64,000 bases of DNA, taken from contig JAUMWB010000005.1 of NCBI GenBank assembly GCA_030529845.1, forward strand, positions 124,001-188,000. The letters run 5' to 3'. The position numbers and the translations under genes are program-made. The DNA is from Rothia sp. (in: high G+C Gram-positive bacteria) (lineage in GTDB: Bacteria; Actinomycetota; Actinomycetes; Actinomycetales; Micrococcaceae). Below the pieces are notes generated by a model. The model worked only from the letters and a program-made list of their open reading frames with translations. It was not told the DNA's origin and did no database searches. Shown in pieces: positions 7,006 through 17,131 of the stretch (position 1 is the stretch's first letter; each line of letters opens with the position of its first letter).

Positions 7006-7731
7006 CTAGGCAGAGAGGACGGTCTTGCGACGCTTTAGCTGAGTGCCAACGTCCTTCAGCCAAGTCCCACGATTAGAAACCGCAGGAACTTCCGTAGTGA
7101 ATGGAGCTATAGCCTGATTCTGCACGAACTCATGGATAGTGACTAACGCTTTTTCCTGACCTTTTCTCGTGGCAACTGTAGGAAGCTGATAGAGCAGCTC
7201 TGAGTTACCTACGCCTAGGTAGAAGGGAAAAACCGCAGGGAAGGCTTTTCGTCCGAGATAAGTGGAGAATCGTGGGCTACGCAGAGCCTGATCGATTTCT
7301 TCGGTACGACCTTCGGCTGTAATACGGACAATAAATTCCGTGTCTGCCAGGTAGGTGCGATTGACTATAGATGTGCCGCCCTGAGCGTCAGGAGTAAAAA
7401 CTAGATTTTTAGCGCTACTAGCTTTCATCCCCTGAGCCAAGAGCAACCGACGCCGAAATTTCTCTTCACCAGTACGTTGATTGATGGTGTGAAAATCATC
7501 TACAAAAATCGCTCTGCGTTCTTGTCGTACAGTAAAATGGGTGCTTTCAAGCCATATCGGCATTTCATTATCACGCTTGTACCCCATAGCCCCTGCAAGA
7601 AGGCCTCGTAGACTGCGCGGGGACGGAACTTCTTCAGTGCGGACAATGTTGCCTGTTACCGCGGCTCCTGCCCAGGACTGTAGGGGCCCAGCAAGCCGGA
7701 TGTAGACGGAATCACTCACTGCTGGATCCAT
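7006..7731 (-). CDS. cas5e: Type I-E Cascade subunit Cas5e (CasD)
   Basis: 241 residues. The N-terminus (SVYIRLAGPLQSWAG) is the typical Cas5 RAMP start, with the TEEVPSPRSLRGLLAGAMGY segment behind it; PFYLGVGNSEL fits the family's 'LGRRS' region. Cas5e caps the 5' handle of the crRNA in Cascade. It overlaps the 3' end of cas7 by 16 bp, so the two are translationally coupled. Last gene of the leftward operon. Confidence 0.93.
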   Translation of the reverse strand: MDPAVSDSVYIRLAGPLQSWAGAAVTGNIVRTEEVPSPRSLRGLLAGAMGYKRDNEMPIWLESTHFTVRQERRAIFVDDFHTINQRTGEEKFRRRLLLAQGMKASSAKNLVFTPDAQGGTSIVNRTYLADTEFIVRITAEGRTEEIDQALRSPRFSTYLGRKAFPAVFPFYLGVGNSELLYQLPTVATRKGQEKALVTIHEFVQNQAIAPFTTEVPAVSNRGTWLKDVGTQLKRRKTVLSA

Positions 7732-8780
7732 TCGACTACAGTATCGATGAACTCCTTAAGGGAGATGGCTTTGAGGTCACCGAACTGACCGTCGAGCCCC
7801 TCGTAGGTTCCGGTCAGCGCTTCAACAGGGCCAAAATTATCGGAATCAAAGCTACGAGCCTGACGGTACTGCTTGGCAAGGTATTCTACGCTGGGAGCCA
7901 AGTAGCCACCATCCTTACCATTGAGCACAGGGGTTTCAAAGTCATAGGCAGTGCGGTACTGCTGTTCCTCTGCAAGGACGAGAGCAGGCTGAATATAGGG
8001 AGCAGTGCTATTTTCCTTGCCACGAGGCAGACCGTAGATAATTGCGGTAATAAGGTCGCGAAGGTTGCCTTCAGAACGTTCCTGGCCAAATCCGGTCCAG
8101 GATTCTTTGAGCTGGGCCTTATCGATGCTGATGGTGCGATAGAAGATTCCATTGGTGTACTGGGCAACGCCAAGGAAAGTCGCACCGGTTTCCCCCTTGC
8201 GCTCCTTCACATCATCTACCGTTGAGAAGTAGTCAGTTTCAATAGTAGCAGCGTGGGTTGTCACCCCAGGTGAAACACTTAAAGCTGCCTCAGTATTCTT
8301 CTGCGGAGCATTGGCGAACATCCGACCAAAGCTGGCTATTGCGAGGGACCCGGTCTTACCTTCCTTGATAAAGTCAGCATCGGTTTTACCCAGGATAGTT
8401 GTTGCGGCAGTAGTAATTTCTTCTTCACTGAGCCAAGATGAACGTGCAGATCCACCCTCGTCATCCCCCTCTTTACCGCTGCCCTTAGTAAGCGTACCGA
8501 CAAGAGTTTTCGCTGCTTTTAAGAGAGTTTTCTCATCTGTATCAGGAGAAATTTCCAGAGCTTTAGCTACTACCTCACCAGCAAGATCCCCTGAGCGTAC
8601 GGAGCGATCCAAGGAAGCATTTTCGTACGCAGTACGAATACCACGCTTAACTGACTGGGATGAATGAAGGGCGCGCAGGGCGCCGCCAACGGTAACGCGC
8701 TTGGGCGTTCCGTTATCATCCCGGTTGAGATTGGAGTAAGGGACGGAGGTCAGAATGCTGATAGTTAGATGGTTTGACAT
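7716..8780 (-). CDS. cas7e: Type I-E Cascade backbone subunit Cas7e (CasC/Cse4)
   Basis: 354 residues. Starts NHLTISILTSVPYSNLNRDD with GTPKRVTVGGALRALHSSQSVKRGIRTAYE, the characteristic N-terminus of Cse4/Cas7e. Six copies form the crRNA backbone in Cascade. The start ATG at 8780 is preceded by AAGGAT. Twelve bases separate it from cse2. Confidence 0.94.
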   Translation of the reverse strand: MSNHLTISILTSVPYSNLNRDDNGTPKRVTVGGALRALHSSQSVKRGIRTAYENASLDRSVRSGDLAGEVVAKALEISPDTDEKTLLKAAKTLVGTLTKGSGKEGDDEGGSARSSWLSEEEITTAATTILGKTDADFIKEGKTGSLAIASFGRMFANAPQKNTEAALSVSPGVTTHAATIETDYFSTVDDVKERKGETGATFLGVAQYTNGIFYRTISIDKAQLKESWTGFGQERSEGNLRDLITAIIYGLPRGKENSTAPYIQPALVLAEEQQYRTAYDFETPVLNGKDGGYLAPSVEYLAKQYRQARSFDSDNFGPVEALTGTYEGLDGQFGDLKAISLKEFIDTVVEWIQQ

Positions 8781-8792
8781 GGTCAGTTATCC

Positions 8793-9410
8793 TTACTGCT
8801 CATCGGCCGATGAGTTTTCCTCGGCCTGTGGAAGGGTGTAGTTGAATGAAGAGTAGTAATCTCGAAGCACCTGGCGACGATTATTTTGCGAGGCTGGAGA
8901 TAATCCGTTCCCCCAGTAAATGATGGTTTTTGCCAGGTTGTATTTATCGAGAGACGGTGGGTTTTGCAATCCATTAGCAAGAGCCAATAACCGCCTAATA
9001 CTCAAAACAGCCTCCTCAAGTGGCTGCGTATGAAGGTAGGCAAGACGCTGACCCACAACATCAGGCTTGTCAGGGTTTAGTACTGCTTGTTTTCCCTCTG
9101 CAAGATGCTTCGACAGGTGATAGCACCAGGAACCGAAGGAACGGTAGCCTGCTCCATTACCTCTATCAAATGTTGGAATATCCCTGTACTCTGCGAGCAT
9201 CGCAGCAACTCTCAAAAGGGCTGTCTTTTGATCTGCAGACTTAAAATCTGTCGCATAAGGCAACACGTAAGGGTAGGCGTAATGTTCAGTTATAGGGCTA
9301 TTCCCGCGACGCAAAGCAGAAATCTCTTTGGCATAACCGCTTTCTTGCTCTGCTATCCAGCTCACCTTTTTGATGAGGTGATACCAAACAGCTAGCTCTT
9401 TATTCACCAT
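8793..9410 (-). CDS. cse2: Type I-E Cascade small subunit Cse2 (CasB/Cas11)
   Basis: 205 residues, mostly helical, with ALRRGNSP, a Cse2 signature, near the N-terminus and a conserved QRLAYLHTQPLEEAV helix. It stabilises crRNA and displaced DNA strand in Cascade. The start overlaps the cas8e stop by 11 bp (coupling). Confidence 0.9.
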   Translation of the reverse strand: MVNKELAVWYHLIKKVSWIAEQESGYAKEISALRRGNSPITEHYAYPYVLPYATDFKSADQKTALLRVAAMLAEYRDIPTFDRGNGAGYRSFGSWCYHLSKHLAEGKQAVLNPDKPDVVGQRLAYLHTQPLEEAVLSIRRLLALANGLQNPPSLDKYNLAKTIIYWGNGLSPASQNNRRQVLRDYYSSFNYTLPQAEENSSADEQ

Positions 9411-11025
9411 CGTCTCCCTCCTGACTAGGGGTTTCCTTGATAATGTTCATTGCTTTCCTAAGACGCGCATAAAGCTGCCCACGCACATATTCAATACGGG
9501 CCACATTTAGGTTACGGTAAGGCAAAACGGTTGCGTCATATGCCCCTATAGCCGCTCGCAACGCATCTTCAAGAAGCGAGTTTGGTAAATAGCCTCGGTC
9601 CTCGCAGTCGTGCTGAAGGAAACGTATATAGACGGGGGTAATAGCCCTCCAATAATTCTCAGAGGCATCCGGCCTGAGTTGCTCCAAATCATCAAGAACA
9701 ACAGGTGCATACCCCTCTAGGGCACGTTTTTCATCTCCAGCGTTTTTCCGTCTAAAAGGTGAACAGACAATAGCGTGCATCTGCTGCACCACGCGAGCCT
9801 GTTCTTGGATAAGCTCCTGAACATCTTCATTTTGCCCAAAAGCCCACCGCTCCGGATCCGGCGTATACACCTGTGAAGCACGAATGCTAGGCGACGATGC
9901 AGTTCCTTCAATCTGATGACGGATAAAAGCTAATCTCGATTCATCTGATGAATAGAAGCAGTCATCTCGTCGCTCTTTAGCTGCCACAGACTTATGTGCC
10001 GCTGCCCATTCGACAGCTAAATCTGTAGCATCTCTTCCTAAGTCAAGCCGCTGGGCTTTAAGGTCTCCTTGCTCGTTCCTCATGTAGAGATACAAGGGAT
10101 CGCGGGTATTGCGATGATCCCACCAGTCCTTGCGAGTATCCTTATCTTGACCCATAGCAGGTAGATACCACTCCTGAGGAATACCGCCAATTCGCACACC
10201 AACTAAACGGTCACCTTCCCACAAGCAAGCTGCTGTATTGGAGCTCCAGGTACCCGCCCACAGGGGGTGTTCCGTCCCATCATCCAGCAGGGCTGTAGCT
10301 CCCAGTCGATCGCACCAAGCTGGCAAGGCATCTCCCTGAACCCAAGTTTTAGGCAATGACTGTAGGAGAGTTGCTAACAGGCTTTTCTCTTCCCAGAAAA
10401 TCTCTGTAGAGGTGTTTCCCTTCCCGAGGAAACGAACACCGGGGGAGCCCATAGCGCACTTTTCACCATCATAGGTATTGTTTCCGGCCATGGAATAGTG
10501 ATGGTGCACTGCGAGATTTTGCACTGCTTCCACCAGACCCAAGCTAGCTTGCTGGGCTACTGATAGGTTCCAGAAATCTTCACCCTGATCTGCCGGCATA
10601 GCAGGAAGCAGTTTTTTAACGGGTTGCTTGCCAAGGGCAAGTAGCCGTGCAGAGTCTCTGGAAGATGTGGGCTCTAATGGTGGGCGCTGCAGGAAGGGGA
10701 AACTAGGTGAAAAAACATCTACACCCATCTCCAGCTGTTTGAGACCTTGATTTACAGCTGATTCGCTCAATCCCTGCTCAAGAATCTTTTTCGCCAGCTT
10801 CTTTTCTCGGCGCGGCTCATACCCCTCCTCGTAACGCAACACTACTGCAAGTACGTCTCTGAGAATCCGCATCTGAGCCCCCAGGAAGTACCCAGGTGTC
10901 TTTTTATCGAGAGCTGCCCCTTCTTGGTGGGAAGACAAGAGCGCGTCCCTTATAGTGACACTAGACACTTCCTTATTGGCTTCAAGGCGAATCCAAGGAA
11001 TGTCGGTTAAAGCATTAGATAGCAA
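9400..11025 (-). CDS. cas8e: Type I-E Cascade large subunit Cas8e (Cse1/CasA)
   Basis: 541 residues, normal length for Cse1, which recognises the PAM and recruits Cas3. Seen: LTDIPWIRLEA at the N-terminus, FPFLQRPP, AVHHHYSMAGNN (the loop region typical of Cse1), ALLDDGTEHPLWAGTW and a C-terminal four-helix part. Start is TTG at 11025, with an AGGAGGT site five bases upstream, which is unusually strong. First gene of the leftward Cascade operon cas8e-cse2-cas7e-cas5e. Confidence 0.94.
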   Translation of the reverse strand: MLSNALTDIPWIRLEANKEVSSVTIRDALLSSHQEGAALDKKTPGYFLGAQMRILRDVLAVVLRYEEGYEPRREKKLAKKILEQGLSESAVNQGLKQLEMGVDVFSPSFPFLQRPPLEPTSSRDSARLLALGKQPVKKLLPAMPADQGEDFWNLSVAQQASLGLVEAVQNLAVHHHYSMAGNNTYDGEKCAMGSPGVRFLGKGNTSTEIFWEEKSLLATLLQSLPKTWVQGDALPAWCDRLGATALLDDGTEHPLWAGTWSSNTAACLWEGDRLVGVRIGGIPQEWYLPAMGQDKDTRKDWWDHRNTRDPLYLYMRNEQGDLKAQRLDLGRDATDLAVEWAAAHKSVAAKERRDDCFYSSDESRLAFIRHQIEGTASSPSIRASQVYTPDPERWAFGQNEDVQELIQEQARVVQQMHAIVCSPFRRKNAGDEKRALEGYAPVVLDDLEQLRPDASENYWRAITPVYIRFLQHDCEDRGYLPNSLLEDALRAAIGAYDATVLPYRNLNVARIEYVRGQLYARLRKAMNIIKETPSQEGDDGE

Positions 11026-11079
11026 CGATTACCTCCTTCGGTATCTACACACCAGAATAGACAGCAAATTTAAACTTCA

Positions 11080-11118
11080 CAAGTACTAGTCTATAAATAT
11101 TGTTATTCTGATTATCAG
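11080..11118 (-). promoter_or_regulatory. Candidate cas8e promoter with small palindrome
   Basis: On the minus strand, TATAGACT (about 11088-11095) is a plausible -10 box, and the odd palindrome CTGATTATCAG (11108-11118) lies at about the -35 position, so it could be an operator. The 10-mer CAAGTACTAG (11080-11089), just past the -10 box, recurs at 11176-11185. Promoter boxes are judged by eye. Confidence 0.4.
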
Positions 11119-11133
11119 CTACTACACTGAAAA

Positions 11134-11213
11134 GCAGAATCCCCCCGCAAACGACGGGGAAGGTCTCGGACTGCCCAAGTACTAGGAACTACCCCGCGCA
11201 TAGCAGGAACCCG
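11134..11213 (-). other. Two CRISPR-repeat-like sequences flanking a short spacer-like segment (possible cas-regulating RNA)
   Basis: Read on the minus strand, 11185-11213 matches the array repeat at 18 of 29 positions without gaps, including 10 of the last 11 (GGGGTAGTTCC against GGGGTATTTCC). About 20 nt later, 11134-11163 has CTTCCCCG...GCGGGGGGATT, again like the repeat with a stem of CCCCG/CGGGG. The segment between begins TAGTACTTGG. With the last C of the first pseudo-repeat, its first ten bases CTAGTACTTG also occur at 11080-11089, beside the likely cas8e -10 box. This layout resembles CreR-type guide RNAs that direct Cascade to repress its own promoter. The resemblance is seen; the function is inference. 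Confidence 0.45.
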
Positions 11214-11264
11214 AGGCAAGAATAACTTTACCAACCCCAACCGATACAATCAGAAAGAAGGCAA

Positions 11265-11960
11265 ATGAAAGTGTCTCGCACAGTGTTCCTCACTAAGTAC
11301 CCAGTCCATGAAGCGCTTATGGTAGATCACCCCTCTAAGCCCAAACATGGCTGGGATATCAACTCCCCTATTTTTCGACACCGAGCCACTATGCACCTTT
11401 TTCCTGAGCTTGCTGGCACTACCCCACGCGCAACCTCCAGTATTCTTTTCCGTCTGGATACTGTTGCCGGTAGCGCGCCCTACTTTCTCATCCAGTCTGA
11501 TATCGCACCGACAGAGGGAAATCCGGTAGAGACAAAGCAGATTGAGCTTGTTTCACCTCCAGTAGGAGCACATATATCTTTCCGTCTGGCCGTTAACGCC
11601 ATCAAGAGGAAGGGGAGCGCAGCAGGTAGCAGTCATAAAAGAGGGTATGGAGTCACTCCGATTCCTTTTGACGGCGATGCCGAAGCAGACGAACGGCTAC
11701 CTCGCATGAGTGAGTGGCTAGCAGATAAACTCTCCCCCGCCCTTGGTGAAGTGACCATCATGAACCATCAACGTCAGGCTCTAGGCACTGACCGTTTCGG
11801 TCGATCACAAGTCAGCCCCTTCGTAGTACAAGTTGATACGATTGATGGCTTTGCCCGCGTCGAAGATACTGCGCATTTGGAATACCTACTGCTAAAAGGT
11901 GTCGGACGGGCAAAATCATACGGCTGCGGCCTACTCTCGATTCGCCCACTAGTCGACTAG
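11265..11960 (+). CDS. cas6e: Type I-E crRNA endoribonuclease Cas6e (CasE/Cse3)
   Basis: 231 residues. The N-terminal KYPVHEALM holds a candidate catalytic histidine, and the C-terminal glycine-rich loop GVGRAKSYGCGLLSI is the Cas6e RNA-binding signature. It cuts pre-crRNA at the base of the repeat hairpin and stays bound as part of Cascade. Here it is not in the Cascade operon but leads the opposite operon, nine bases ahead of cas3. An AGAAAGAAGG site precedes the ATG. Confidence 0.93.
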   Translation: MKVSRTVFLTKYPVHEALMVDHPSKPKHGWDINSPIFRHRATMHLFPELAGTTPRATSSILFRLDTVAGSAPYFLIQSDIAPTEGNPVETKQIELVSPPVGAHISFRLAVNAIKRKGSAAGSSHKRGYGVTPIPFDGDAEADERLPRMSEWLADKLSPALGEVTIMNHQRQALGTDRFGRSQVSPFVVQVDTIDGFARVEDTAHLEYLLLKGVGRAKSYGCGLLSIRPLVD

Positions 11961-11969
11961 GAAATACCC

Positions 11970-14600
11970 GTGAAGGCTCACCCTTACATCTGGTCGAAGC
12001 AGAACGGCCTCATCCAAACTTATCCTCTTTTAGCCCATTTACTTGACACTGCGGCAGTTGCCCTAGCCCTCCACGATCATTGGCTCAGGCCAGGTCTACA
12101 GGCTCTCCTTGCGGACGAGTTAGGTAAAGAAAGCAAAAAGATTATTCAGTGGATCGCAGGATCTCATGATGTAGGAAAAGCGTCTCCCATTTTTCAAGCT
12201 CAGCCTCGGTTCAAAAAACCTGAATGGGAGCAAATACGAAAATCCATTTCTGAGAACGAACCGGCCTGTGCTTTTCTTGATGAGAGAACCCTTGCAGACA
12301 TCGCACGAAGCGGTAATAGATTCCTGCATAGGCATGAGCAAATAGGTGCTTTCACGATCTCGAATGGAGAGCTGACAGATCGTAATGATGATGCATCAGA
12401 CTTTTGGTTTGCTCTTCCGGCGCTAGGGCATCACGGCGCCTTCACTTTCCCGGATCAGGGAGATAACAAAGTCACCCGGCGAAGGTTCCAAAAAGCACTT
12501 GCAGCAGGTTGGTCTGACGCGCAATCTGATTTACTCGATATTTTATCCGAGTCCCTGGGCATTTCCCCCAATGATTTCCCTGAAGAAGTCTCCCCAACCG
12601 TCATTGTCTTGCTCTCCGGTCTTGTTATTCTCGCCGACCGTATCGCATCGGGCACCGACTGGGTTACCCAAAACCAAGAACTTATGAATCAGGGGAAGCT
12701 CTCTCTCGATAAACCTGCAACATGGGTTGAACTGTGTACTGGCCGAGCCCTGCAACGTATCAAAGATACGGTAGGTCTTTACCACAGCTGGGAAAGCACT
12801 GACGCAGCTCTTTCTTCTATTTTGGGGGACCATAGTCCACGCCCCTTACAACAAGAAGCCCTGGCTGCAGGCGAAGGTATTTGGAATGCGATGGCGCCAA
12901 CCGGCAATGGAAAAACTGAAGCAGCGTTGCTCCGCCACTCACTCAAAGACGAGCGGCTTATCTTTCTTCTTCCTACCCAAGCTACAACGAACGCTCTTAT
13001 GCGGCGAGTCCAAAAAGCTTACAAGTCCACACCTAATGTCGCTTCCTTAGCCCACGGTCTTTCTTCCATCGAAGATTTCTACACCCGGCCTATAACCTTA
13101 TTCTCTGACACCTGCAACGGCCATGACAGTGGCGGACTCTACCCCACTGAATTTGTTAAATCTGGGGCTGCCCGTCTACTAGCCCCCGTCTGCGTTGGTA
13201 CCATCGATCAGCCGCTCATGGCATCTATCCCCATGAAATGGACCCATCTACGCCTATTAGCACTTGCTAACTCTCACGTAGTCATTGATGAAATTCATAC
13301 TTTAGACCATTACCAGAGCGAACTGCTCGTTCCCTTACTTACCTGGTTTGGCCTAACTAACACTCGCGTGACCTTCTTATCCGCAACGTTCCCTCAATGG
13401 CAACGAGACCGCTTCATGCAGGCTTACACAGGAACAAATCCAGAACAGAAAGCCATTTTTCCTGCAGTTGAAACCGTCAGTTCAGAGTCTCCTAAGCCTC
13501 AGCAAACCGTGCTTTCTGTACCTGAATACACCATTGACTTCACTTTCTCAGAACCAGATTTTACAGATTTAGAATCCACGCATATTCAATGGGCTAGCGA
13601 ACAAAGACGCTCATTCCCTCTAGCAAGACTAGGCATTATCTGCAATACGGTGAAAAGGGCACAGGCTATTGCACAGGAGCTATCTAACCGGGGAGAGACA
13701 GTTATTTTGTTACATTCGCGGATGACCGCAGAACACCGCAAACGTAACGCCGAAATTCTTGAAAAAACAATTGGAGCTGGCGGTCTGGGAACTTCACTAA
13801 CTGTCGTTGGTACCCAGGCAATAGAAGCATCTCTAGATATCGATCTCGATCTGCTCTCGACAGATCTCTGCCCTGCTCCGTCCTTAATTCAACGTGCAGG
13901 GCGCGTATGGCGACGAGAAGACACCAGGAGGGAACAGAGAATACCTGGGGTGCCCAATCTAACGATTCATGTCATAACTCCTCACGATGCCGAAAGTTGG
14001 ATGCTCAAGCCCTACTACGCGGCTGAACTGCAACGAACCTGGGATTTCTTACAAGAGCACTCCGCTTTTAGTTGCCCATCTATGAATCAAGCTTTCGTTG
14101 ATGCAACAGCCGTAACCCTTGATTCTATTCTCACCTCTGAAGACCAGGACCAGTTTGTTGAAAATATTGCCTCTCTAAAGAAGGGTAAGGATAAGTCAAA
14201 ACACCTGGCTACCGCTCTACACCCGCTCAGCACTATCAAAGAATTCAGCGATATAACTGACAAAAATATCAACGACACAGAAGATGGTGCTTTCACCCGA
14301 CTCATTAACAGCGAGATCCGTCAAGTAATCGTTGGTGGCAATCCAAAACAGATACCCGGCGCTTGGGAAGGTTCTCTGGAAGATTTGCTCTCTCTTACTG
14401 CACACAACCAGCAAGAAATTCAAAAAGCACTACGGGCGTCCTTGCCCATTGTTGTTTCTAAGAATAACCGTGAATATCTCAATGGCCTGCCTGCGCTCTC
14501 TGACTCTAAGACCCTCCTCAACCGCTATTACTATATGCAGGTACCTGAAGGCAACACATACGACCACGTTCTCGGCTTTATAGGAGTCAGCGAAGAATGA
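11970..14600 (+). CDS. cas3: CRISPR-associated nuclease/helicase Cas3
   Basis: 876 residues, start GTG. N-terminal HD nuclease: H23 in LAHLLDT and H66-D67 in AGSHDVGKA. Superfamily 2 helicase: Walker A APTGNGKTEAAL (near residue 310), DEIHTLDHY (about 440), SATFPQWQRDRF (about 471), and motif VI QRAGRVWRRE. It degrades DNA flagged by Cascade. All catalytic motifs are present, so it looks active. The stop overlaps the cas1 start (ATGA). Confidence 0.95.
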   Translation: MKAHPYIWSKQNGLIQTYPLLAHLLDTAAVALALHDHWLRPGLQALLADELGKESKKIIQWIAGSHDVGKASPIFQAQPRFKKPEWEQIRKSISENEPACAFLDERTLADIARSGNRFLHRHEQIGAFTISNGELTDRNDDASDFWFALPALGHHGAFTFPDQGDNKVTRRRFQKALAAGWSDAQSDLLDILSESLGISPNDFPEEVSPTVIVLLSGLVILADRIASGTDWVTQNQELMNQGKLSLDKPATWVELCTGRALQRIKDTVGLYHSWESTDAALSSILGDHSPRPLQQEALAAGEGIWNAMAPTGNGKTEAALLRHSLKDERLIFLLPTQATTNALMRRVQKAYKSTPNVASLAHGLSSIEDFYTRPITLFSDTCNGHDSGGLYPTEFVKSGAARLLAPVCVGTIDQPLMASIPMKWTHLRLLALANSHVVIDEIHTLDHYQSELLVPLLTWFGLTNTRVTFLSATFPQWQRDRFMQAYTGTNPEQKAIFPAVETVSSESPKPQQTVLSVPEYTIDFTFSEPDFTDLESTHIQWASEQRRSFPLARLGIICNTVKRAQAIAQELSNRGETVILLHSRMTAEHRKRNAEILEKTIGAGGLGTSLTVVGTQAIEASLDIDLDLLSTDLCPAPSLIQRAGRVWRREDTRREQRIPGVPNLTIHVITPHDAESWMLKPYYAAELQRTWDFLQEHSAFSCPSMNQAFVDATAVTLDSILTSEDQDQFVENIASLKKGKDKSKHLATALHPLSTIKEFSDITDKNINDTEDGAFTRLINSEIRQVIVGGNPKQIPGAWEGSLEDLLSLTAHNQQEIQKALRASLPIVVSKNNREYLNGLPALSDSKTLLNRYYYMQVPEGNTYDHVLGFIGVSEE

Positions 14601-15532
14601 GTTACTCAGAAGAAGCCCTAGCGTTCTCCACTATTCCTACCGATCATCAAGTCAGGCTAGAAGACCGAGTATCCTTCCTTTATCTGGAATACTGCGTAAT
14701 CCGGCAAGACAAAACAGGTGTTATTGCCTACGGGGGCGATACCGAGAAAGGCGTTATAGCTGGCAAAAGAGTTCAGCTACCAGTCAGTGGACTTTCAGTA
14801 CTTATGCTTGGGCCAGGAACAAGCATCACTCAGCCCGCTATAACCTCGTGCACTCGTGCAGGAACAACTGTCATGTTCACTGGAGGAGGCGGAGTACCCG
14901 CCTATTCGCATGCCACCCCGCTGACCTCATCCGCACGCTGGGCTATTGCACAAGCCCGACTCATTGCTCAAGAAAAGAATCAGCGTATCGCTGCCCTAGT
15001 CCTATATAAAAAACAACTCGGCATTGAGCATATGCCCGGGGGAACTATCGCCGCTATGCGTGGATTAGAGGGGAGAACTATCAGAAACCTCTACCGTGAC
15101 ACAGCCAAGAAACACAAAATTACGGGGTTCCGCAGACAAGTCGATGCTGACGATAACGTGAATATGGCACTTAATATTGCCAACTCTATACTCTATGGGT
15201 GTGCGGCAGCAGCCTGCGCCGCTATCGGAGTAAACCCGGCTCTAGGAATTATTCATCGAGGTGATGCCCGGTCTCTTCTTTTCGACCTTGCTGATCTCTA
15301 CAAACCTTCACTATCAATTCCTGTTGCTTTTGCATGCCATAACAGCACTAATCTCGCTGAAGACGTTAGGACAGGAGTCCGAAAAGAACTTGTCAAACAG
15401 CAGGTCCTCAAAGGTATGCTCCAAACGTTAATGGAAGTGCTTACACCACACCTACCGAACAGAGATGATGATCGGCTTATTTCAGACCGTGGCGAAGAGG
15501 TCGACGGGCATACCCAATACGGAAGCGAATAA
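14597..15532 (+). CDS. cas1: CRISPR adaptation endonuclease Cas1 (type I-E)
   Basis: 311 residues. Metal ligands by position: Glu in MRGLEGRTIRNLYRD, His in GIIHRGDARSLLFD, and Asp of LFDLADLYKP. The N-terminal beta domain (DRVSFLYLEYCVI) and the TGGGGVPAYSH segment are typical of I-E Cas1. It integrates new spacers with Cas2. It overlaps cas3 by 4 bp. Confidence 0.95.
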   Translation: MSYSEEALAFSTIPTDHQVRLEDRVSFLYLEYCVIRQDKTGVIAYGGDTEKGVIAGKRVQLPVSGLSVLMLGPGTSITQPAITSCTRAGTTVMFTGGGGVPAYSHATPLTSSARWAIAQARLIAQEKNQRIAALVLYKKQLGIEHMPGGTIAAMRGLEGRTIRNLYRDTAKKHKITGFRRQVDADDNVNMALNIANSILYGCAAAACAAIGVNPALGIIHRGDARSLLFDLADLYKPSLSIPVAFACHNSTNLAEDVRTGVRKELVKQQVLKGMLQTLMEVLTPHLPNRDDDRLISDRGEEVDGHTQYGSE

Positions 15533-15537
15533 TAGAT

Positions 15538-15849
15538 ATGTTTGTGGTTCTCTCTGCAACAGCCATACCTGAGCATCTGCGCGGGTACCTCAGCAGATTT
15601 TTATCAGAAGCAACGACTGGACTGTATGTTGGTAACGTATCAAAACGAGTACAAGAAAATCTTTGGATAAGGTGTACCCTCGCTGCGAAGGAAGGATCAT
15701 TCACAATGATTACCAGTGACCGGAAGACAGAGCAGGGTTTCACCATTCAGTCAGTAGGTGCCCAGAGCCGTCCTGTCATTGAACTAGATGGTCTCTCAAT
15801 GACTTATCTTCCAGTACCTAAAAACAGCGAAAATTCAGATTTAAGCTGA
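15538..15849 (+). CDS. cas2: CRISPR adaptation protein Cas2 (type I-E)
   Basis: 103 residues, E. coli-type Cas2: FVVLSATAIPEHLRGYLSRF, TGLYVGNVSKRVQENLW, and the QGFTIQSVG strand. Forms the Cas1-Cas2 integrase. Five bases separate it from cas1. Its stop is only 21 bp from the first CRISPR repeat, so the array's leader must lie largely inside this gene. Confidence 0.93.
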   Translation: MFVVLSATAIPEHLRGYLSRFLSEATTGLYVGNVSKRVQENLWIRCTLAAKEGSFTMITSDRKTEQGFTIQSVGAQSRPVIELDGLSMTYLPVPKNSENSDLS

Positions 15850-15870: not shown

Positions 15871-16996
15871 CTCTTCCCCGCTCAGGCGGGGGTATTTCCC
15901 ATGCCGCACACCGCCAGCATCACACGCTCACCTCTTCCCCGCTCAGGCGGGGGTATTTCCGGAAAATTTCGTGGCCGTCAGCGCCTGCTCTACTCTTCCC
16001 CGCTCAGGCGGGGGTATTTCCGTCGCGCCACCCGGTATCTCCGTAGGTGACCTCTCTTCCCCGCTCAGGCGGGGGTATTTCTCAAACTCGGTCTTACGAG
16101 CCTGCGCCTGCTTCTCTTCCCCGCTCAGGCGGGGGTATTTCCGGGTCATGCGCAGGGTCGAGTAAGTATCTCGGCTCTTCCCCGCTCAGGCGAGGGTATT
16201 TCCACAGGTGTGACACTTATAGATATGCCCATTGACTCTTCCCCGCTCAGGCGGGGGTATTTCCCTACCGCACGAACACCCTCTTGGAGTATGCGCCTCT
16301 TCCCCGCTCAGGCGGGGGTATTTCCGAACGGGGCGGCCTTCCTTGACCAGGTGGCGCCTCTTCCCCGCTCAGGCGGGGGTATTTCCATGACCTGGTCGGA
16401 GCAGATGACCCGCTACCCCTCTTCCCCGCTCAGGCGGGGGTATTTCCGGGGTGGTGACTTGGTCAGACTCGCTACTTTGCTCTTCCCCGCTCAGGCGGGG
16501 GTATTTCCTTCGGGGCCAACAATCCTGTAAGTGTTCTCCTCTCTTCCCCGCTCAGGCGGGGGTATTTCCGGGTTTCTTCTTGGGTACTCATTTACTGGCC
16601 TCTCTTCCCCGCTCAGGCGGGGGTATTTCCGTCATGCAGCTGTGCCTGGCATACGTCGGTGACTCTTCCCCGCTCAGGCGGGGGTATTTCCGTCATGCAG
16701 CTGTGCCTGGCATACGTCGGTGACTCTTCCCCGCTCAGGCGGGGGTATTTCCGTGGAGAAGCCCCAGCAAACTTTTGTACCCCGCTCTTCCCCGCTCAGG
16801 CGGGGGTATTTCCGGCGCGGGCATACCAGCCCATCAGAGCTTTCTCTCTTCCCCGCTCAGGCAGGGGTATTTCCGGCTAGGCCTACCAGCCCCTTGCTAA
16901 TGCCTCCTCTTCCCCGCTCAGGCGGGGGTATTTCCGACCATATCGCCGTAGGAATCGACGTTGTTGCCTCTTCACCGCTCAGGCGGGGGTAGTTCT
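15871..16996 (+). CRISPR. Type I-E CRISPR array: 19 repeats, 18 spacers
   Basis: 29-nt repeats beginning CTCTTCCCCGCTCAGGCGGG and ending GGTATTTCC, with a CCCCGC/GCGGGG hairpin in the same sense as E. coli I-E repeats, so transcription is rightward from cas2. Repeats start at 15871, 15932, 15993, 16054, then 16114 and every 61 bp to 16968. Spacers are 32 nt, except the fourth (31 nt, after a repeat whose last base is T). Point changes occur in repeat 6 (16175, GCGAGGG) and repeat 17 (16846, GCAGGGG). The last repeat (16968-16996) has three changes and marks the trailer end. The 13th and 14th spacers (16631-16662, 16692-16723) are identical. Confidence 0.98.
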
Positions 16997-17033
16997 GTTG
17001 GTAACCCACACCTATGAACTCGACTTAACCATT

Positions 17034-17049
17034 CTCCGCAAAAGCGGAG
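17034..17049 (+). other. Small hairpin in the CRISPR trailer
   Basis: CTCCGC AAAA GCGGAG, 38 bp past the last repeat, without a T-tract. Could end array transcription weakly; otherwise 16997-17131 holds nothing I recognise. Confidence 0.35.
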
Positions 17050-17131
17050 GAATGCCTTAGCGATACCCTTATCTGTACCAAACGCAGTGCAAAAAAGAGT
17101 TCAATGCTTTCAAGAAATACCCATTTAAACC

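What the first reader, a model, noticed from the sequence alone, without database searches (positions are those of the whole stretch)
11080..11213. Possible self-targeting CRISPR-like guide in the cas8e/cas6e divergent promoter
Seen: on the minus strand two degenerate copies of the array repeat (18/29 matches at 11185-11213; a CCCCG/CGGGG hairpin copy at 11134-11163) flank about 20 nt. The 10-mer CTAGTACTTG at the start of that segment recurs at 11080-11089, next to the likely -10 box of cas8e. Known: in CreR/CreA systems, pseudo-repeats make a guide whose short seed match lets Cascade repress a promoter without cutting. Inference: this locus encodes such an autoregulator for a type I-E system. 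Weak points: a 10-mer match in a 240-bp region has a chance of a few percent, AGTACT is palindromic so it could be a protein operator, and the base 5' of the target (GAC) is not a known PAM here.
Basis: partly seen in the sequence, partly recalled or inferred. Interest (0 to 1): 0.75.

Follow-up and report, generated by a model that had tools for sequence, protein, structure and literature searches.

The report
RNA-guided self-repressor of type I-E CRISPR
In a Rothia bacterium and some of its relatives, a miniature CRISPR unit beside the CRISPR-Cas genes encodes a short guide that matches the switch region of those same genes, so the CRISPR machinery very probably turns down its own production; this kind of self-regulator is already known, and these are new examples with clear evolutionary evidence.

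Summary
On the minus strand a degenerate repeat (11213-11185), a 20-nt guide (11184-11165) and a second degenerate repeat (11164-11136) form a mini-CRISPR. The guide matches a site in front of cas8e (11088-11074). The shared 10-mer occurs only twice in the 2.4-Mb genome, both here. Fourteen of 23 fetched relatives (3 of 3 Rothia, 11 of 19 from family f3, 0 of 1 other) carry the same unit. Guides differ widely, yet each matches its own promoter over positions 1-15, and mismatches concentrate at positions 6 and 12, which type I crRNAs leave unpaired (15/24 there, 5/156 elsewhere). All 15 targets follow [A/G]AC. The best predicted promoter puts the target over the -35 box, not beside the -10. The target promoter runs straight into cas8e, with no convincing toxin gene in Rothia, so CreR is favoured over CreTA. 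It is a CreR-type autorepressor of type I-E Cascade: a new member of a known kind. No transcript or repression was measured.

The parts
11185..11213 (-). Pseudo-repeat 1 (degenerate type I-E repeat); hairpin TCCTGC/GCGGGG; supplies the crRNA-like 5' handle GTAGTTCC (11192-11185)
   Evidence: 18/29 to the array repeat, handle 7/8; a 6-pair stem can be drawn in all 15 loci, with changed pair types
11165..11184 (-). Guide (pseudo-spacer), 20 nt, starting TAGTACTTGGGCAGT
   Evidence: Directly follows the handle; matches the promoter at 13 of positions 1-15, mismatches at 10 and 12
11136..11164 (-). Pseudo-repeat 2: hairpin CCCCG/CGGGG followed by a T-rich tail (3' hairpin of the guide RNA, possibly also terminator)
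   Evidence: 15/29 ungapped, fold -11.6 kcal/mol; terminator-like call at 11161-11141
11219..11249 (-). Candidate promoter of the guide RNA: TTGTAT (11249-11244) - 19 nt - TATTCT (11224-11219); weak
   Evidence: Consensus scan only; a CTGATT/TAAAGT alternative scores slightly higher
11074..11088 (-). Target of the guide in the cas8e promoter
   Evidence: Only zero-mismatch PAM+seed site in the genome; cognate pairing in 15 loci
11089..11091 (-). PAM GAC of the target
   Evidence: All 15 targets follow AAC or GAC; array protospacers favour NAC
11054..11082 (-). Predicted cas8e promoter: -35 TTGTGA (11082-11077), -10 TATTCT (11059-11054)
   Evidence: prediction
9400..11025 (-). cas8e (cse1/casA), first gene of the Cascade operon; TTG start with AAGGAGG at 11038-11032
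   Evidence: NCBIfam TIGR02547, E 1.1e-7, below its curated cut-off; homologues at 72, 57 and 51% in Rothia
8793..9410 (-). cse2 (casB)
   Evidence: TIGR02548, E 8e-6, just below its cut-off
7716..8780 (-). cas7e
   Evidence: TIGR01869 above cut-off
7006..7731 (-). cas5e
   Evidence: TIGR01868 above cut-off
11265..11960 (+). cas6e, the processing endonuclease
   Evidence: TIGR01907 above cut-off
11970..14600 (+). cas3
   Evidence: TIGR01587 and TIGR01596 above cut-off
14597..15532 (+). cas1e
   Evidence: TIGR03638 above cut-off
15538..15849 (+). cas2e
   Evidence: TIGR01873 above cut-off
15871..17028 (+). CRISPR array: 19 repeats of 29 nt, 32-nt spacers (spacer 4 is a base shorter; the end of the last spacer is assumed)

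Best explanation
The locus encodes a CreR-type guide RNA. A minus-strand transcript over about 11215-11130 is cut by Cas6e at the two pseudo-repeat hairpins, giving a crRNA-like RNA with an 8-nt handle, a 20-nt guide and a 3' hairpin. Cascade loads it and binds GAC+TAGTACTTG in the cas8e promoter, pairing over roughly the first 15 nt, too few to expect Cas3 attack. The bound complex covers the -35 box and blocks RNA polymerase, so Cascade represses its own operon. Canonical crRNAs that compete for Cascade, or inhibitors that disable it, would relieve the repression. Shown by sequence: the mini-CRISPR anatomy, preserved hairpins, PAM, a single close genomic target, and guide/target co-change with mismatches at positions 6 and 12. 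Inferred: the promoters, transcription, Cas6e cutting, Cascade loading, repression and relief.
For: Each of 12 non-redundant guides matches its own region better than any other of the 12 regions (cognate 11-13 of 13; non-cognate 7-11). In all 15 loci the guide/target pair reaches the highest pair score anywhere in its region, sometimes tied with other pairs. Match profile over 12 loci: positions 1-5 all 12/12; 6, 4/12; 7-11, 12,12,11,11,12; 12, 5/12; 13-15, 12,11,10; positions 16-25, 0-6/12. Mismatches at 6 and 12 versus the other 13 positions: 15/24 versus 5/156, Fisher p 5e-12; Rothia only 7/8 versus 2/52, p 7e-7 (related loci, so p values are optimistic). PAM [A/G]AC in 15/15 targets; independent array PAM NAC in 10 of 14 protospacer cases at 30/32 or better, and 10 of 19 counting all at 26/32 or better. 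Pseudo-repeat hairpins kept in all 15 loci with changed pairs such as CCCCAT/ATGGGG and CCCCAA/TTGGGG. Predicted -35 box starting between -4 and +18 of the target start: the best promoter of the whole gap in 10 of 15 loci, and the best within 25 nt before to 30 nt after the target start in 14 of 15. Only one close target in the genome. Published precedents: CreA pairs at 1-5 and 7-11 with 6 and 12 free (PMC8501985, passages); CreR autorepression of types I-B, I-E and V-A (PMC13131331, passage).
Against: No expression, processing, binding or repression data. Pseudo-repeat 1 is only 18/29 to the repeat and has two G-U pairs in its stem. Promoters are consensus predictions: in 5 of 15 loci (L009, L010 by a tie, L013, L014, L016) the top promoter of the gap lies elsewhere, and that of the guide RNA is weak. 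Nine of the 24 loci fetched lack a complete unit: no pseudo-repeats seen in L011, L017, L018, L023, L028, L029 and L030; pseudo-repeats but no good target in L027 and L032. In L031 the pairing is 11/13 and 4 of 1000 shuffles reach it. Four of 14 close protospacer cases do not follow NAC (GCC, GAT, CAA, CGC). Some targets hold palindromes an operator would have (AGTACT here, TACAATTGTA in L012; by eye). Small ORFs between target and cas8e exist in some loci, so a CreT-like gene is not strictly excluded.
Confidence: 0.9

Rival explanations
1. Operator pair: a DNA-binding protein recognises the near-palindrome CAAGTACTAG at both sites, and the resemblance to a crRNA is incidental.
For: AGTACT is palindromic; L012 (TACAATTGTA) and, less perfectly, L015 and L021 also have inverted repeats in the target (by eye, sequences). 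Two copies 96 bp apart in a divergent promoter is a common operator layout.
Against: In the relatives the repeated word is different in nearly every genome and often not palindromic (for example GGGTCTAATGGATTG, ATTTACGGACGACGG), but always sits right after a crRNA handle and right after [A/G]AC. Mismatches fall at positions 6 and 12.
Confidence: 0.03
2. CreTA: the guide is the antitoxin CreA and represses a small toxin gene rather than the cas operon.
For: Same guide design; in Haloarcula hispanica creTA lies between cas6 and cas8, and a CreT can be a six-codon ORF (PMC8501985, passage and abstract). Small ORFs lie between target and cas8e in 8 of 15 loci; four related f3 loci share a six-codon ATG ORF.
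Against: The target promoter runs into cas8e: about 15 nt lie between the predicted -10 box and the cas8e Shine-Dalgarno sequence in the window. The window's three small ORFs (7, 11 and 12 codons, GTG or TTG starts) have no Shine-Dalgarno-like sequence upstream, and L012 and L010 have none of 5 codons or more.
Confidence: 0.04
3. Non-functional relic: a decayed array end, with matches left over from an accidental duplication.
For: Pseudo-repeats are degenerate, and units are absent or broken in 9 of 24 fetched loci.
Against: Matching is kept over 13 positions while positions 6 and 12 and the flanks drift, across genomes whose Cas8e is 36-72% identical to the window's; hairpins are kept with changed pairs. 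Decay does not do this.
Confidence: 0.02

Closest known systems
CreR (cas-regulating RNA) of type I-B, I-E and V-A systems
   Same: Mini-CRISPR beside the cas genes whose guide has limited complementarity to the cas promoter; includes type I-E (review passages; the primary 2023 paper is recalled, not read).
   Different: Hosts: Rothia and another family of the same order; guide and target turn over together; complementarity runs through position 15; guide lengths 15 to 32 nt. Whether these loci were listed in the primary paper could not be checked.
CreA of CreTA modules (haloarchaeal type I-B)
   Same: Two degenerate repeats around a pseudo-spacer, PAM-flanked promoter target, positions 6 and 12 free (PMC8501985, passages and abstract).
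   Different: Target lies in the promoter in front of cas8e, no convincing toxin gene in Rothia; 13 conserved pairs in 1-15 instead of 10 in 1-11.
SpyCas9 autorepression (type II-A)
   Same: The effector represses its own expression and anti-CRISPRs relieve it (one sentence in PMC13131331).
   Different: Different effector and guide RNA; no mini-CRISPR (recalled).

Membership tests
CreR | Degenerate repeat - short spacer - degenerate repeat outside the array, near cas genes | tested here: met
   15 of 24 examined loci have the complete unit
CreR | Repeat of the cognate subtype with retained Cas6 hairpin and 5' handle | tested here: met
   Handle 6-8 of 8; six standard pairs can be drawn in 15 of 15, best of the loop lengths allowed
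CreR | Partial complementarity, seed-centred, to the promoter of its own cas operon | tested here: met
   Complementarity. That the site is the promoter is a prediction
CreR | Target flanked by the PAM of the system | tested here: met
   [A/G]AC in 15/15 targets; array protospacers NAC in 10 of 14 close cases
CreR | Guide transcribed, processed and bound by the Cas effector | not testable with these tools
   Needs RNA sequencing and Cascade pull-down
CreR | Effector- and guide-dependent repression of cas, relieved by competing crRNAs or anti-CRISPRs | not testable with these tools
   Needs reporter assays
CreTA | A toxin gene (creT) under the targeted promoter | tested here: inconclusive
   Window: three small ORFs, none with a Shine-Dalgarno-like sequence, not shared by L012 or L010; a six-codon ORF is shared by L014, L020, L021, L022
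Type I-E CRISPR-Cas locus | cas8e, cse2, cas7e, cas5e, cas6e, cas3, cas1e, cas2e | tested here: met
   All eight genes hit type I-E or Cas3 models; Cse1 and Cse2 score below their curated cut-offs

The most novel reading that the evidence does not exclude
These CreR guides load a shortened Cascade that can bind but not recruit Cas3: five of 15 loci have a guide of exactly 15 nt, the same length as the conserved match, and others have 19-20, 27 or 31-32. One such complex, sitting between the two divergent cas operons, represses both. Guide and target are replaced together so that each species carries a private, self-specific regulatory code.
Probability: 0.25. Interest if true: 0.65.

Novelty: new member of a known kind. 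Interest (0 to 1): 0.52.

Why it matters
It shows in natural sequences that type I-E Cascade is very probably used as a programmable repressor of its own genes. The base-flipping geometry of the crRNA can be read directly from guide/target co-evolution. It also gives a likely PAM (NAC, mostly A/GAC) for Rothia type I-E and ready-made test pairs: cognate and swapped guides and promoters from several species.

Tried and rejected
Protein operator, CreTA and relic were considered and set aside, CreTA not strictly excluded (see rivals).

PAM from phage records was inconclusive: four similar but not identical phage stretches (26-28 of 32) gave TCC, TGC, GGC and TAT. Protospacers in other Rothia genomes settled it; I did not check that they lie in prophages. 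In one search I gave 28 of the returned loci (15 for the window's array, 7 for L009's, 6 for L012's); loci that looked like other arrays, two further copies of one repeated place (L099, L103), and matches returned without a locus were not used. The tally is 19 distinct array/spacer/PAM cases at 26/32 or better after collapsing repeats: GAC 4, AAC 3, TAC 2, CAC 1, and nine others once each (GCC, GAT, ACT, TGC, TAT, ACC, CAA, CGC, GAG). One of the 19 lies in the window's own genome (spacer 4, ACT). One spacer of L009 counts twice, with two PAMs. One window candidate (L112, 20/32) was dropped as too weak, and one L012 candidate (L051, 27/32, flank GGA) was left out.

A second target for the conserved last array unit (16968-17028): one hit in each of two genomes, equal to the reversed control, so nothing.

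Strict quantisation of guide length in steps of six from 32 was considered. Lengths 15 (5 loci), 19 (1), 20 (4), 27 (3), 31 (1), 32 (1) are clustered but do not fit exact 6-nt steps, so it is not claimed.

An orientation bug gave wrong pseudo-repeat identities and guide lengths; one search corrected them. The guide/target alignments do not depend on it. Thirteen of the 15 pairs came from the blind scan (which used neither repeats nor PAM; where shifted registers tied, I took the one at the handle); L013 and L031 were placed by eye. On recheck the pair reaches the region's maximum score in all 15, in L013 tied with the two pseudo-repeats. Three redundant loci (L020, L025, L026) were dropped before the 12-locus counts. 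The promoter scan looked only from 25 nt before to 30 nt after the target start; one search repeats it over the whole gap and gives 10 of 15. One search failed with a script error and was redone.

Not fetched: f3 hits G1155 and G1268 (partial cas8e) and weak hits G426, G521 and G773. The primary CreR paper was not found in the library; searches listed reviews and CreTA papers among others. I therefore cannot say whether Rothia or these relatives are already listed in print.

Full report
WHAT THE WINDOW IS. The window lies in a 2.4-Mb genome of the genus Rothia: the one relative that a scan with Cas6e found is Rothia nasisuis 69RC1 (79% identical), whose contig equals that of G021 in length, and G021 is in the same genus as the window. 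The window holds a complete type I-E locus: cas8e-cse2-cas7e-cas5e on the minus strand, cas6e-cas3-cas1e-cas2e on the plus strand (Cse1 and Cse2 score below their curated cut-offs), and an array of 19 repeats. The finding sits in the 239-bp gap between the divergent cas8e and cas6e.

THE OBSERVATION. Minus strand, 5' to 3': pseudo-repeat 1 (11213-11185, 18/29 to the array repeat, last eight bases 7/8), a 20-nt guide (11184-11165), and pseudo-repeat 2 (11164-11136, hairpin intact). Farther on, GAC (11091-11089) and TAGTACTTGTGAAGT (11088-11074) match guide positions 1-9, 11 and 13-15. The shared 10-mer is present only twice in the genome, both here. PAM plus paired positions, with positions 6, 10 and 12 masked, has one zero-mismatch site, the promoter; the guide itself is one mismatch away, in the PAM; everything else has two or more.

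COMPARATIVE TEST. Cas8e homologues, the window's own counted, were found in 4 of 35 Rothia genomes, 5 of 395 genomes of the family (the same four included), 9 of 396 in the order, 3 of 394 in the class, and, without the window, 21 of 213 in another family of the order, f3. I examined 24 loci: 4 Rothia (window included), 1 other genus of the same family, 19 of f3. Fifteen have the full unit: pseudo-repeat, guide, pseudo-repeat, and a matching target behind [A/G]AC. These are all four Rothia and 11 of 19 f3 loci; their Cas8e is 36-72% identical to the window's. Two have pseudo-repeats but no good target: L027, where tblastn finds cas5, cas7 and cse2 (and cas8e) but not cas6e, cas3, cas1 or cas2 in the fetched 20 kb, and L032, best match 8/13. 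Seven show no pseudo-repeats: L011, L017, L018, L023, L028, L029 and L030 (L011 and L018 were only read by eye). L017, L018 and L023 have short gaps.

CO-CHANGE. The guide words differ between genomes: in Rothia TAGTACTTGGGCAGT, ATACAGTTGTAGTGT, TGGCGAGAGGGCATA and AGTTGCCTATAGGTT. After dropping three redundant loci (L020, L025, L026), every one of 12 guides matches its own region best: cognate 11-13 of 13 paired positions, non-cognate 7-11. Shuffles: 0 of 1000 reach the observed score in 11 loci, 4 of 1000 in L031; an earlier run gave 4 of 2000 for the window and 0 of 2000 for the three other Rothia. Across the 12 loci, mismatches within positions 1-15 number 15 of 24 at positions 6 and 12 and 5 of 156 elsewhere. 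At positions 16-25 matching drops to 0-6 of 12. The type I-E crRNA does not pair at every sixth base (PMC12871591, passages), and the CreA guide of haloarchaea tolerates changes at 6 and 12 (PMC8501985, passages). The loci are related, so the Fisher p values (5e-12 for 12 loci, 7e-7 for Rothia alone) overstate the number of independent events, but the four Rothia guides alone show the pattern (7 of 8 versus 2 of 52).

PAM. Spacers of the window's, L009's and L012's arrays hit other places in Rothia genomes (whether these are prophages was not checked). Of 14 distinct cases at 30/32 or better, 10 are preceded by NAC (GAC 4, AAC 3, TAC 2, CAC 1) and 4 are not; of all 19 cases at 26/32 or better, 10. 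Published type I-E PAMs include AAC for Bifidobacterium and AC for Corynebacterium (PMC8482600, table passage). So the regulatory target carries the favoured PAM, while the guide's own gene carries TCC in that place.

STRUCTURE AND POSITION. In all 15 pseudo-repeat 1 copies six standard pairs can be drawn (best of the loop lengths allowed), with changed pairs such as CCCCAT/ATGGGG and CCCCAA/TTGGGG in place of CCCCGC/GCGGGG; minimum-energy folds keep a hairpin in every copy. A predicted cas8e -35 box starts between -4 and +18 of the target start in 14 of 15 loci when the scan is limited to the target's surroundings, and in 10 of 15 when the whole gap is scanned. In the window the best promoter is TTGTGA-17-TATTCT, and its -10 box ends about 15 nt before the Shine-Dalgarno sequence of cas8e. 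Small ORFs lie between target and cas8e in 8 of 15 loci; those of the window lack a Shine-Dalgarno-like sequence and L012 and L010 have none. A promoter towards cas6e may lie just on the PAM side of the target in several loci; this is weak but would let one bound Cascade block both operons.

MECHANISM. Shown by sequence: anatomy, PAM, single close target, co-change, mismatches at 6 and 12. Inferred: promoters, transcription, Cas6e cutting, Cascade loading, steric repression, relief when crRNAs compete or Cascade is inhibited. The inference follows CreR in types I-B, I-E and V-A as described in two reviews (PMC13131331, one passage; PMC12737573, passages). The primary paper is recalled, not read.

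VERDICT. A CreR-type autorepressor of type I-E Cascade, confidence 0.90; new member of a known kind. What adds interest is the clarity of the evolutionary footprint and the turnover of guide/target pairs.

Noticed in passing
window 16968-17060: The last array unit (degenerate repeat, spacer GTTGGTAACC..., then a CTCCGC/GCGGAG hairpin) is nearly identical in R. nasisuis (L012), unlike the two units before it; other spacers were not compared. A PAM+seed pattern search found nothing above control.
   Followed up: partly
window 16083-16113: Array spacer 4 (31 nt) matches the strain's own genome elsewhere at 28 positions (G000:C2:574135-574167), flank ACT, so it lacks the NAC PAM.
   Followed up: partly
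window 16631-16662 and 16692-16723: Spacers 13 and 14 of the array are identical: a duplicated unit.
   Followed up: no
L014, L020, L021, L022, about 45 nt downstream of the target start: Four related f3 loci share a six-codon ATG ORF between the target and the cas8e start; it could be chance, a leader, or a CreT-like gene.
   Followed up: no
L027: Relative with cas8e, cse2, cas7 and cas5 but no cas6e, cas3, cas1 or cas2 found in the fetched 20 kb; its pseudo-repeat 1 handle is degraded and no target match remains, a possible natural loss case.
   Followed up: partly
L032, upstream of cas8e: The start of cas8e (AGAATGGCTATCAAC) is duplicated upstream of pseudo-repeat 1; guide/target match only 8/13.
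   Followed up: no
window 11076-11103: A promoter-like site towards cas6e (TTCACA-16-TATTGT; 0.4 expected in shuffles) overlaps the guide's target; sites just on the PAM side recur in several relatives.
   Followed up: partly
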